A stretch of 63,021 nt of DNA from assembly GCA_947623955.1 (NCBI GenBank), contig CANQIP010000008.1, positions 1 through 63,021 of the forward strand, given 5' to 3'. Under the pieces are notes generated by a model, which ran no database searches, was not told where the DNA came from, and was given only the letters and a program-made list of their open reading frames with translations. A program made the translations under genes and the position numbers. Shown here piece after piece: positions 15,245-21,276 of the stretch (positions are counted from its first letter, which is position 1; every line of letters starts with the position of its first letter). The stretch is from an uncultured Clostridia bacterium. Its GTDB lineage: Bacteria; Bacillota; Clostridia; UBA1381.

Positions 15245-15261
15245 AAATACAGATAATATAT

Positions 15262-15369
15262 TCTTCGGGGTGCGGTGAAATTCCCTACCGGCGGTTACAG
15301 CCCGCGAGCCATTTTGGCATGATTTGGTGAAATTCCAAAGCCGACGGTATAGTCCGGATGCGAGAAGGT
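15262..15369 (+). ncRNA. FMN riboswitch (RFN element)
   Basis: Sequence landmarks of the RFN aptamer are present in order: GGGGTGCGGTGAAATTCC, CTACCGGCGGTTACAG, CCCGCGAGCC, a variable stem with TTTGG...CCAAAG, CCGACGGTATAGTCCGGATG and closing GAGAAGG. The P1 stem pairs CTTC (15263-15266) with GAAG (15364-15367). It precedes ribD and is followed by a terminator, so FMN binding should cause premature termination of the rib operon. Confidence 0.96.
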
Positions 15370-15376
15370 TTGTTTG

Positions 15377-17171: not shown

Positions 17172-18377
17172 ATGCAGTTTAACACGATCCCCGAGGCTAT
17201 AGAGGATTTGAAACAGGGTAAAATGATAATGGTGGTTGACGACGAGAACCGCGAAAACGAGGGCGATTTGATCGCCGCATGCGAGTTTGCCACAGGTGAA
17301 ATGCTCAATTTTATGGCAAGCTACGCGAAGGGGCTTATCTGTATGCCGATGTCGGGCGAATGGGCGGCGAGACTTCACCTTTTGCCTATGGTCGCCGACA
17401 ACACCGACAACCACGAAACGGCGTTCACCGTGTCGGTTGACGCGGTCGGCACGACTACGGGCATATCCGCTTACGAGCGCGCCGACACGGCTCGCAAAAT
17501 TGCCGACGAAAACGCGCTGCCGTCCGACTTCCGCCGTCCGGGGCATATGTTCCCGCTTATAGCTAAAAACGGCGGAGTGTTCGAGCGTAAGGGGCATACC
17601 GAGGCTACGGTCGATTTGCTCAAATACGCGGGGCTTAAACCGTGCGGACTATGCTGTGAAATTATGGCTGACGACGGTCATATGATGCGGTTGACGCAGC
17701 TTACGGAGTTTGCGCAAAAGCACGGCTTTACGCTTATATCGGTCGCGGATTTGGAAAAGTACCGCCGCGAGCATGAGGTGATAGTCGAATGTGTGGCGAA
17801 GGCAAAATTCCCGACGCGTTACGGTAAATTCACAATTCACGGTTTTGTGAACAAGCTTAACGGCGAGCATCATGTCGCGCTCACGATGGGCGAAATGAAC
17901 CCCGACGAGCCGATTTTATGCCGCGTACATTCGGAGTGCCTCACCGGCGACGCGCTCGGCAGCGCACGCTGCGACTGCGGTCAGCAGTACGACGCGGCGA
18001 TGAAACGAATTGCGAAAGAGGGCAGGGGAGTGCTGCTCTATTTAAGACAGGAGGGACGCGGAATAGGTCTTATAAACAAAATCCGCGCGTACGCCTTGCA
18101 GGACGAGGGTATGGACACCGTGGAGGCAAACCTCGCGCTCGGTTTCCCCGAGGATATGCGCGATTACAGCGTCGGCGCGCAGATTTTAGCGGAACTCGGC
18201 GTGGGTAAAATGCGGCTAATGACAAACAATCCGCTGAAAATAGACGGATTGGAAAAATTCGGGCTGGAAATTGTCGAGCGCGTTCCGATACAAATCGAGG
18301 CAGGTAAGGACGACGAGTTTTACCTGCTCACAAAACAACATAAAATGGGACATTATTTGAATTACGATAAGGAATAA
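17172..18377 (+). CDS. ribBA: Bifunctional DHBP synthase/GTP cyclohydrolase II
   Basis: Supplies both precursors of riboflavin. 401 residues. The N-terminal 3,4-dihydroxy-2-butanone-4-phosphate synthase (about 1-200) has [11 protein letters not shown] near 18 and RPGHMFPL. The C-terminal GTP cyclohydrolase II has the zinc site [15 protein letters not shown] near 256-270 and [26 protein letters not shown] precedes ATG 17172. The stop codon TAA (18375-18377) is also the left target-site copy of a MITE-like insertion that separates this gene from ribH. Confidence 0.97.
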
Positions 18378-18753
18378 ATTATGATTTAGCGGCGAAATAC
18401 GGGCGACCGCAAGGGGTCGCCCCTACGTATGGCTCCCCTTGAGGGGAGCTGTCGCCGTAGGCGACTGAGAGGTGGTTCACAAAAACACATTGCCACCTCT
18501 CCGTCATCGCTCCGCGATGCCACCTCTCCTCAAGGAGAGGCTCACGATATGCGCCGCACGCCGTATGGCTCCCCTACTAGGGGAGCTGTCACACGTAGTG
18601 TGACTGAGGGGTTTATGCGGGCGAACACGGTTCGCCCCTACGAAAACGGGCTGTCGAGGGCGCCAGCCCCTACGGCGCACGATTTTTAAAATTACGGGTG
18701 TAGGGGACGGCGCCCTCGACGTCCCGCATCACATTACACCGCTAAATCATAAT
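18378..18753. mobile_element. MITE-like element with 15-bp terminal inverted repeats
   Basis: The ends ATTATGATTTAGCGG (18378-18392) and CCGCTAAATCATAAT (18739-18753) are perfect inverted repeats, each flanked by TAA (18375-18377 and 18754-18756), which looks like a 3-bp target duplication. The 376-bp interior codes for nothing convincing. It is built of palindromic modules: GGGCGACC...GGTCGCCC at 18401-18422, two copies of a GGCTCCCCT...AGGGGAGCTGTC unit with a second hairpin (18431-18465 and 18567-18604), a diverged inverted copy (about 18491-18543), GGGCGAAC...GTTCGCCC near 18619-18638, and GGCGCC-containing GC-rich arms near 18650-18725. Modules often end in CCCTACG. Probably mobilised in trans; no transposase is in the window. 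Confidence 0.82.
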
Positions 18754-18782
18754 TAAACACATAAATAAAAGGAGGAATAACA

Positions 18783-19244
18783 ATGAAAATCTTAGAAGGA
18801 AAATTGGTAGCGAAGGACATCAAAATCGGCATTGTCGCGTCGCGTTTCAACGAGTTTATCGTATCGAAACTCATAAGCGGCGCGGAGGACGGACTTTTGC
18901 GTCACGACGTAAGCGGCGATAACATCACTCTCGCGTGGGTGCCGGGCGCGTTCGAGATACCGCTTATGGCTAAGAAAATGGCTGAAAGCGGCAAATACGA
19001 CGCGGTGATTTGTTTAGGTGCGGTAATACGCGGCGCGACGTCGCATTACGATTACGTCTGCAACGAGGTATCAAAGGGCATAGCACAGGTATCGCTTGCC
19101 ACGGGCGTACCCGTAATGTTCGGCATACTCACGACCGACAACATCGAGCAGGCGATAGAACGCGCCGGAACTAAGGCGGGCAATAAGGGCTACGACTGCG
19201 CTCTCGGCGCGATTGAAATGATAAATCTCGCGAAACAGATATAA
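18783..19244 (+). CDS. ribH: 6,7-Dimethyl-8-ribityllumazine synthase
   Basis: Forms the lumazine that riboflavin synthase uses; usually assembles a 60-mer shell. 153 residues, normal length, with [15 protein letters not shown] near 20, [15 protein letters not shown] near 53, [17 protein letters not shown] near 78 and [17 protein letters not shown] near 112. RBS AGGAGG at 18771-18776. It is the last rib gene but lies 405 bp after ribBA because of the MITE-like insertion, so its expression depends on read-through of that structured DNA or on a promoter I do not see. Confidence 0.97.
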
Positions 19245-21035: not shown

Positions 21036-21044
21036 ACAATAAAG

Positions 21045-21276
21045 CGATGAAAAAGACAGTAATCCGTGGCAAAAACCACAAGAGAGAGAACCTCGCGGCT
21101 GGAAGGGTTCTTTGGCGGGTCATGGGCGAACACCACTTTGGAGCAGTACAGCGAACTGTACCGTATGTCTGCGATAAAGACCTAACCGAGTGACAGCCCG
21201 AAAGGGTTGTAATTAGGGTGGAACCGTGTAATTTTTTGCACCCCTAAGGCTATAATAGCTTTAGGGGTCTTTTTAT
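21045..21276 (+). ncRNA. T-box leader, threonyl specific
   Basis: Contains the AGAGAG bulge sequence of stem I (about 21080), a GAACACCACTTTGGAGC specifier-loop signature in which ACC (Thr) at 21132-21134 is the likely specifier codon, and the T-box AGGGTGGAACCGTG at 21215-21228. It ends in a terminator hairpin (ACCCCTAA...TTAGGGGT, then TCTTTTT, 21240-21276). Uncharged tRNA-Thr should favour the antiterminator and raise thrS expression. Confidence 0.95.

What the first reader, a model, noticed from the sequence alone, without database searches (positions are those of the whole stretch)
18375..18756. MITE-like element inserted at the ribBA stop codon inside the rib operon
Perfect 15-bp terminal inverted repeats (ATTATGATTTAGCGG) flank 376 bp of modular palindromes, and a TAA triplet is duplicated at both ends; the left TAA is the ribBA stop. 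Insertion that duplicates the stop codon leaves ribBA intact while separating ribH by 405 bp of highly structured DNA. The interior reads as a mosaic of recurring units (GGCTCCCCT...AGGGGAGCTGTC and hairpins ending CCCTACG) rather than a simple deletion derivative of a transposon. A 3-bp TNA-type duplication is consistent with some IS5-group transposases, which is inference.
Basis: partly seen in the sequence, partly recalled or inferred. Interest (0 to 1): 0.72.

Follow-up and report, generated by a model that had tools for sequence, protein, structure and literature searches.

The report
Fixed palindrome sites, swapped interiors
A small hairpin-rich DNA element sits between two vitamin B2 genes of a gut bacterium, and in related species elements with the same ends occupy the same spots while their contents have largely been exchanged.

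Summary
The window element (18375-18756) belongs to a dispersed family with a 14-bp end core, TAAATTRTGATTTA, filled with GTAG-type REP hairpins and larger palindromes; the genome holds 96 matches to its DNA. It is MITE-like, but the 'duplicated TAA' is the element's own end (TAA left, TTA right; one substitution in the window copy), and an IS5 origin is not supported.

The surprise came from relatives. At the ribBA stop, five of seven close genomes (own included) carry an element at the same base with different interiors; two are empty. Over 14 sites in seven relatives, 61 of 98 cells are filled, 15 empty or remnant, 22 unclear or without data. Flanks are orthologous up to the core; inside it, sharing a site predicts almost nothing, whereas interiors resemble other sites of the same genome. 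Best reading: old foldback insertions, mostly just 5' of ribosome-binding sites, whose contents are replaced in place by copying among dispersed copies. The trigger is unknown: SbcD was not found in this genome. All data are MAG assemblies.

The parts
18375..18388 (+). left end core TAAATTATGATTTA; its first three bases are the ribBA stop codon
   Evidence: exact core; boundary from the alignment of 114 ends and from loss of orthology at this point
18743..18756 (-). right end core TAAATCATAATTAA (1 mismatch to the inverted core, TTA changed to TAA)
   Evidence: same-site copies in G005, G010, G011 read ...AATTTA
18398..18427 (-). module A: GTAG-tagged REP hairpin (GGGCGACC...GGTCGCCCCTACG)
   Evidence: inverted repeat I6 and direct repeat D2; naming by comparison with the description in PMC3733652
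18431..18546 (+). module C: compound palindrome GGCTCCCCTTGAGGGGAGCTGTC...GGAGAGGCTCACG
   Evidence: inverted repeats I3, I5 and direct repeats D1, D3, D4; many genomic matches over this part
18567..18614 (+). half of module C4 (GGCTCCCCTACTAGGGGAGCTGTCACACGTAGTGTGACTGAGGGGTTT)
   Evidence: direct repeats D1 and D3; recurs in elements printed
18618..18642 (-). second module A, other stem type (GGGCGAACACGGTTCGCCCCTACG)
   Evidence: direct repeat D2
18647..18726 (.). module B: two GTAG hairpins with their GTAG tails facing each other
   Evidence: inverted repeat I1, 27-nt arms, 85% complementary
17172..18377 (+). ribBA, intact, stop TAA at 18375-18377
   Evidence: ORF of 401 aa; aligned full length in relatives
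18783..19244 (+). ribH, intact; its Shine-Dalgarno AGGAGG starts about 12-14 nt outside the right core
   Evidence: ORF of 153 aa; relatives 97-100% identical in 6 genomes; distance

Best explanation
The element is a non-coding foldback (MITE-like) insertion that entered the ancestor of a small clade of gut Clostridia at many intergenic places, often a few bases 5' of the Shine-Dalgarno sequence of the next gene. Since then the positions have mostly been kept, while the DNA between the end cores has been replaced repeatedly, in either orientation, with the interiors of other elements of the same genome. Shown here: conserved positions; loss of orthology at the core; interiors unrelated to site but related within a genome; occasional loss of whole elements. 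Inferred: that replacement is non-reciprocal copying between dispersed copies (ectopic gene conversion or template switching at hairpin-rich DNA) which ends where homology ends, at the core; that several losses are slippage deletions between short direct repeats. Not known: what starts it. The REP hairpins inside may in addition be moved by a REP-associated tyrosine transposase that this genome encodes.
For: Same site, different content: ribBA-ribH in five genomes; 16 orthologous sites printed; site 7 filled in 8 of 8 genomes with lengths 336, 177, 247, 430, 241, 447, 394, 160. Boundary: identity of same-site ends 0.699 over -40..-1 against 0.303 for shuffled site labels (0 of 300 reach it), but 0.355 over +14..+59 against 0.345 (24 of 300 reach it). 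Interiors: collinear coverage of same-site pairs mean 0.31 (144 pairs), the same as pairs from different sites and genomes (0.31, 3020 pairs); different sites of one genome 0.45 (491 pairs); only 12 of 144 same-site pairs reach 0.8, 5 in the same and 7 in the opposite orientation. 80-nt windows match best another site of the same genome in 537 of 803, an equal number of other-genome other-site elements in 199; per element 60 of 73. Exchange does not need two intact ends: at site 46 G000, G008, G010 and G011 share the same damaged right core yet differ inside. No empty intermediate: at sites 0, 10, 11 and 12 the empty relatives lack some 5-14 flank bases that the filled relatives share.
Against: No replacement was watched, and donor and recipient were not identified for any single event. 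Patchy gene conversion should leave some orthology just inside the ends, and almost none is seen, which fits an exchange cut at the ends equally well. Same-site copies keep a slight edge over other-site copies of other genomes (43 against 30 of 73 elements; mean best bits 66 against 61). I first thought of SbcCD cleavage of hairpins as the trigger, but SbcD was found in only 5 of 16 genus genomes and not in G000, G005, G007, G008, G010 or G011. Identical empty joins in lineages that are not sisters (G007/G008 at site 0; G005/G015, and G008 with one base different, at site 11) are not well explained by independent deletions. Core conservation is partly built in, because elements were picked by their cores. 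3 of the 61 filled cells have no recognisable core at either end (site 3 in G005 and G010, site 8 in G001).
Confidence: 0.55

Rival explanations
1. Cassette exchange by a dedicated enzyme: a transposase or recombinase that recognises the core cuts or swaps whole core-to-core segments between elements.
For: Orthology stops at the core with almost no residue inside it, both orientations occur about equally, the core is sharply bounded and is itself nearly palindromic.
Against: Exchange also occurred at site 46 where the right core is damaged in four genomes; some pairs keep outer modules and differ in the middle (G000 and G001 at the ribBA site, coverage 0.49); no gene with these ends was found, though only some transposase families were searched.
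Confidence: 0.2
2. Repeated independent insertion of a strongly site-selective mobile element, with loss and re-insertion at the same base.
For: Losses are real (G008 is empty or scarred at 7 of 13 sites with data); sites share a location just outside Shine-Dalgarno sequences (14 of 19 sites) and a weak G-rich outer flank.
Against: The flank consensus is far too weak to fix a base; empty relatives lack flank bases that all filled relatives share, so the filled ones did not pass through such an empty state; the shared damaged end at site 46 shows common descent of that insertion.
Confidence: 0.12
3. Module-by-module gain through a REP-associated tyrosine transposase and loss by slippage, without exchange between elements.
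For: Modules A and B are GTAG-type REP hairpins; Y1 transposase domains occur in 10 of 16 genus genomes; the G000 and G010 genes match the REP-associated transposase model at E 7e-19 and 1e-19, below its curated cut-off (68 and 71 of 80 bits).
Against: It should leave the sequence next to the ends in place; that sequence is replaced too. No Y1 match was found in G005, G011 or G015, which show the same turnover. Modules C and C4 are not of GTAG type.
Confidence: 0.08
4. Assembly artefact: short-read assemblers chose wrong paths through about 100 similar copies.
For: Every genome used is a MAG in 20 to several hundred contigs, and several contigs end inside elements.
Against: Left and right flanks always belong together, which wrong paths between copies would break; contigs stop at some elements instead of jumping; G000 and G008 keep the same interior at 2 of 6 shared sites (7 and 61).
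Confidence: 0.05

Closest known systems
MITEs of prokaryotes (review PMC10969869, passages seen)
   Same: Short, non-coding, multicopy, inverted ends, intergenic; described there as hotspots for homologous recombination.
   Different: No autonomous partner and no target duplication demonstrated; interiors at one site are unrelated between species. The review passages searched held no hit for 'internal', 'modular' or 'same site'.
GTAG-tagged REPs and RAYTs (Di Nocera et al. 2013, PMC3733652; abstract, passages and sections 16 and 17 part 1 seen)
   Same: Modules A and B have a GTAG tag followed by a stem, B as a tail-to-tail pair; a Y1 transposase of the RAYT kind is present in G000.
   Different: Here they are cassettes inside a larger inverted-end element; the paper's text lists Proteobacteria, Cyanobacteria, Chloroflexi and the PVC group for GTAG and has no hit for 'Firmicutes'.
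Composite repeats: BIMEs, pneumococcal BOX, Correia elements (PMC3049150, passages seen)
   Same: Modular repeats whose length varies between genomes at one site.
   Different: BOX varies in the number of one tandem module (boxB); here whole interiors of different modules replace one another in either orientation.

Membership tests
MITE | short non-coding element with terminal inverted repeats in many copies | tested here: met
   ends; 86 elements of 143-514 bp, median 280
MITE | target-site duplication | tested here: inconclusive
   no duplicated bases beyond the symmetric TAA/TTA end; empty joins at sites 0, 2, 11, 12 differ from a simple TA or TAA duplication
MITE | autonomous transposon with the same ends | tested here: not met
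   none among pairs (capped list) or in G000 for DDE_3; other transposase families not searched, genome 87.6% complete
IS5-group derivative | 3-bp TNA duplication | tested here: not met
   left TAA and right TTA in other copies
IS5-group derivative | ends shared with an IS5 transposase element | tested here: not met
   the IS5-family gene in L143 is bounded by other inverted repeats (AAACACTGATTAAT) inside two 41-bp core palindromes
GTAG REP (modules A and B only) | GTAG next to a stem-loop, paired or clustered | tested here: met
   sequence; repeats; criteria from PMC3733652 text, its figures not seen
GTAG REP (modules A and B only) | RAYT gene in the genome | tested here: inconclusive
   G000 C2:84565-84879 hits Y1_Tnp (26.3 bits, over cut-off) and NF047646 at E 7.1e-19 but 68.1 bits against a cut-off of 80

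The most novel reading that the evidence does not exclude
The cores act as permanent docking frames in the 5' leaders of genes, and a core-recognising system exchanges structured cassettes among about a hundred frames, so that each species deals its genes a new set of leader hairpins from a shared deck.
Probability: 0.2. Interest if true: 0.88.

Novelty: new variant of a known kind. Interest (0 to 1): 0.68.

Why it matters
Bacterial interspersed repeats are usually thought of as inserted, decaying or expanding where they are. Here position and content have come apart: insertions are kept across species that differ by 6-11% in ribBA and ribH, while the inserted DNA is dealt anew, faster than the flanks mutate. 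Of six sites filled in both sister species G000 and G008, only two keep the interior. Because most frames end 5-23 nt from a Shine-Dalgarno sequence, such exchange would keep rewriting leaders of conserved genes. It gives a natural assay for ectopic exchange in bacteria and a warning that repeats at the same place need not be orthologous.

Tried and rejected
An IS630-type partner (DDE_3): none in G000, control in 3 of 14 genomes. IS5 of L143: own ends, so not the partner; 0 of 61 genomes at E <= 1e-20. Long core pairs of 1.5-2.6 kb in L146, L155, L165 and L167 enclose ordinary genes, not transposases, and L165 and L167 are phage-like contigs, probably chance. SbcCD as trigger: SbcD in 5 of 16 genus genomes, not in the own one. 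Intrinsic terminator inside the element: 0 found; two weak promoter-like sites against 0.5 expected. Rfam: nothing at gathering threshold in the element; two sub-threshold whalefall-1 hits. Literature searches for exchange of interiors at conserved sites listed nothing that I recognised as describing it; only titles and abstract starts were seen for most hits, and subscription journals are not held.

Mistakes on the way: one search missed minus-strand loci (mended); one search merged unrelated sites by shared interior (mended); one search used 47 elements and compared same-site pairs in one orientation only, which one search replaces with 86 elements in both orientations.

Rows dropped before counts: one search left out the nine viral loci; one search dropped 8 of 65 candidate elements; searches used only elements of about 140 bp or more; one search kept only ends with at most 4 core mismatches (146 ends, 38 site-ends). 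The sites 21, 22, 35, 40 and 55 come from loci fetched for module or end matches; the 14 sites were found by flanks alone. The filled/empty tally (61, 15, 4, 18 of 98) was made by eye; the output was cut in the middle.

Full report
What is there. The window is contig C8 of a 2.13-Mb assembly in 56 contigs, 87.6% complete. The element lies between ribBA and ribH of a rib operon that begins with an FMN riboswitch. The finding's description holds: 15-bp perfect inverted ends, literal TAA on both sides, 405 bp between the genes, a mosaic interior. As RNA it folds with z -12.65.

A family. The 389-bp element has 96 matches in the own genome. The 15-bp end occurs 25 times with up to two mismatches against 1 for the reversed control. 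Aligning 114 ends gives a core TAAATTRTGATTTA with positions 94-99% conserved except position 6 (A 61%, G 37%) and position 13 (A 86%), and a steep drop on both sides; part of this conservation is selection, because elements were picked by their cores. The exact core occurs 152 times in eight close genomes of the genus, once in G009 (whose reversed control also has one hit) and not in the seven others. Outside, a 20-base end pattern hit 48 stretches in the GTDB genome set, 43 of them titled Clostridia bacterium, many from MAGs named Lapin, goat or sheep gut. The minimal form seen is a 41-bp palindrome of two cores, twice in L143.

The TAA. Left ends read TAA|ATT and right ends AAT|TTA in most copies, so the triplet belongs to the inverted end. 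The window's right end carries one substitution: G005 and G011 read AATTTAACAC at the same site, the window AATTAAACAC. Relatives without the element already have the ribBA stop. A TNA duplication is therefore not supported; no other duplication could be fixed.

Relatives at this site. Seven close genomes have ribBA-ribH at 88.7-94.1% nucleotide identity to one another. G000, G001, G005, G010 and G011 are filled (382, 260, 226, 224 and 173 bp), G007 and G008 are empty with the same join, and more distant G006, G012, G013 and G002 have short spacers without it. G008 is sister to G000 (bootstrap 90); the other branches of this two-gene tree are weak (24-52). The interiors differ: G000 and G001 share outer modules and differ in the middle (coverage 0.49), G000 and G010 share 0.32, and most other pairs share nothing.

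Many sites. I took the flanks of 14 sites in G000 and found them in seven relatives. Of 98 cells, 61 are filled, 15 are empty or carry a remnant, 4 are unclear, and 18 have no data (tally by eye). Three filled cells have no recognisable core. Site 7 is filled in all eight genomes. G008 is filled at 6 and empty or scarred at 7 of 13 sites. By inspection, G008's joins at sites 3, 10 and 12 look like deletions between 4-5 bp repeats that leave scraps of the end, with one further substitution at sites 10 and 12; this is inference. The same empty joins in non-sister genomes (sites 0 and 11) remain unexplained.

Where orthology stops. Anchoring 146 ends on the core, same-site ends of different genomes are 0.699 identical over -40..-1 (ungapped) against 0.303 with site labels shuffled within genomes (0 of 300). 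Over +14..+59 they are 0.355 identical against 0.345 (24 of 300). The core itself is too conserved to be informative.

What interiors resemble. For 86 elements, same-site pairs cover each other collinearly by 0.31 on average, exactly as pairs from different sites and genomes; different sites of one genome reach 0.45. Twelve of 144 same-site pairs reach 0.8, seven of them inverted. Per element, other sites of the same genome beat other sites of other genomes in 60 of 73 and beat the same site in other genomes in 48 of 73; the same site beats other sites of other genomes in 43 of 73, a weak remaining signal. Some interiors have spread whole within G000: sites 3, 5 and 6 carry the same one in both orientations.

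Why not re-insertion. Four genomes share one damaged right end at site 46 and differ inside. At sites 0, 10, 11 and 12 the empty genomes lack flank bases that the filled ones share, so the filled ones did not pass through that empty state. Among the exact cores listed, no inverted pair of transposon length was seen other than two pairs formed by neighbouring elements (G011 C14, G010 C99).

Mechanism. I commit to in-place replacement by copying from dispersed copies, ending where homology ends. It explains fixed positions, random content and orientation, similarity within genomes, and exchange at a damaged end. It does not explain why almost nothing next to the ends is left in place, which a core-recognising exchange would explain better. 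Hairpin cleavage by SbcCD is unlikely as a general trigger: SbcD is found in 5 of 16 genus genomes, G001 and G015 among the carriers, and not in G000 (controls ring in 13 of 14). Fork stalling, gap repair or RAYT nicking are untested.

Modules. A (GGGCGACC...GGTCGCCCCTACG and variants) and B (two such hairpins, GTAG tails inward) meet the GTAG-REP description of PMC3733652 (text only). C, C2, C3 and C4 are larger compound palindromes (my labels). Another two-hairpin unit has inserted inside arms of others. RAYT-like genes in G000 and G010 lie at the same place and carry two GTAG hairpins within the reading frame, of different stem types in the two genomes.

Setting. At 14 of 19 sites one end lies 5-23 nt from a Shine-Dalgarno-like sequence reading outward; over all ends the rate is 0.37 against 0.06 in shuffled flanks. 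The elements are thus mostly leader-proximal. No intrinsic terminator is predicted in the window copy.

Limits. All genomes are MAGs, one per species; strains within a species could not be compared. Pairs within a site are not independent. Ends were matched without gaps. The literature searches cover open-access papers only.

Noticed in passing
L291:1459-2034 (G000 C2) and L292:1462-1977 (G010 C49): RAYT-like transposase genes at the same place downstream of a formyltransferase-like gene hold two GTAG REP hairpins inside the reading frame; the stem types differ between the two genomes at the same two places, so the exchange of hairpin type may also happen within a gene.
   Followed up: partly
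16 genomes of the genus: SbcD is patchy: found in G001, G002, G013, G014 and G015, not in the other 11, including 6 of the 8 genomes that carry the end core.
   Followed up: partly
window 18503-18543 (-) and 18429-18476 (+): Module C resembles Rfam whalefall-1 RNA (RF01762) below the gathering score: 24.0 and 15.9 of 37 bits, E 6.4e-4 and 0.27. PMC2864571 passages describe it from whale-fall metagenomes only.
   Followed up: no
L143:3194-4693: An IS5-family element with its own ends lies between two 41-bp perfect or near-perfect core palindromes in a Ruminococcaceae MAG.
   Followed up: partly
L137, L139, L142 (JAFQKN): In a goat-caecum MAG the core elements lie inside a second, outer inverted repeat (CACGGAAAGTTGGGGGAT).
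   Followed up: no
sites 7 (G005), 8 and 21 (G015), 55 (G005, G011): A unit of about 55-60 nt (GCTACGGC...GCCTAC plus a hairpin and GTTCAC) is inserted inside hairpin arms of other modules.
   Followed up: no
window 15257-15373 and 21038-21248: FMN riboswitch before the rib operon and a T-box leader before the threonyl-tRNA synthetase-like gene (gene naming by recall from its sequence).
   Followed up: no
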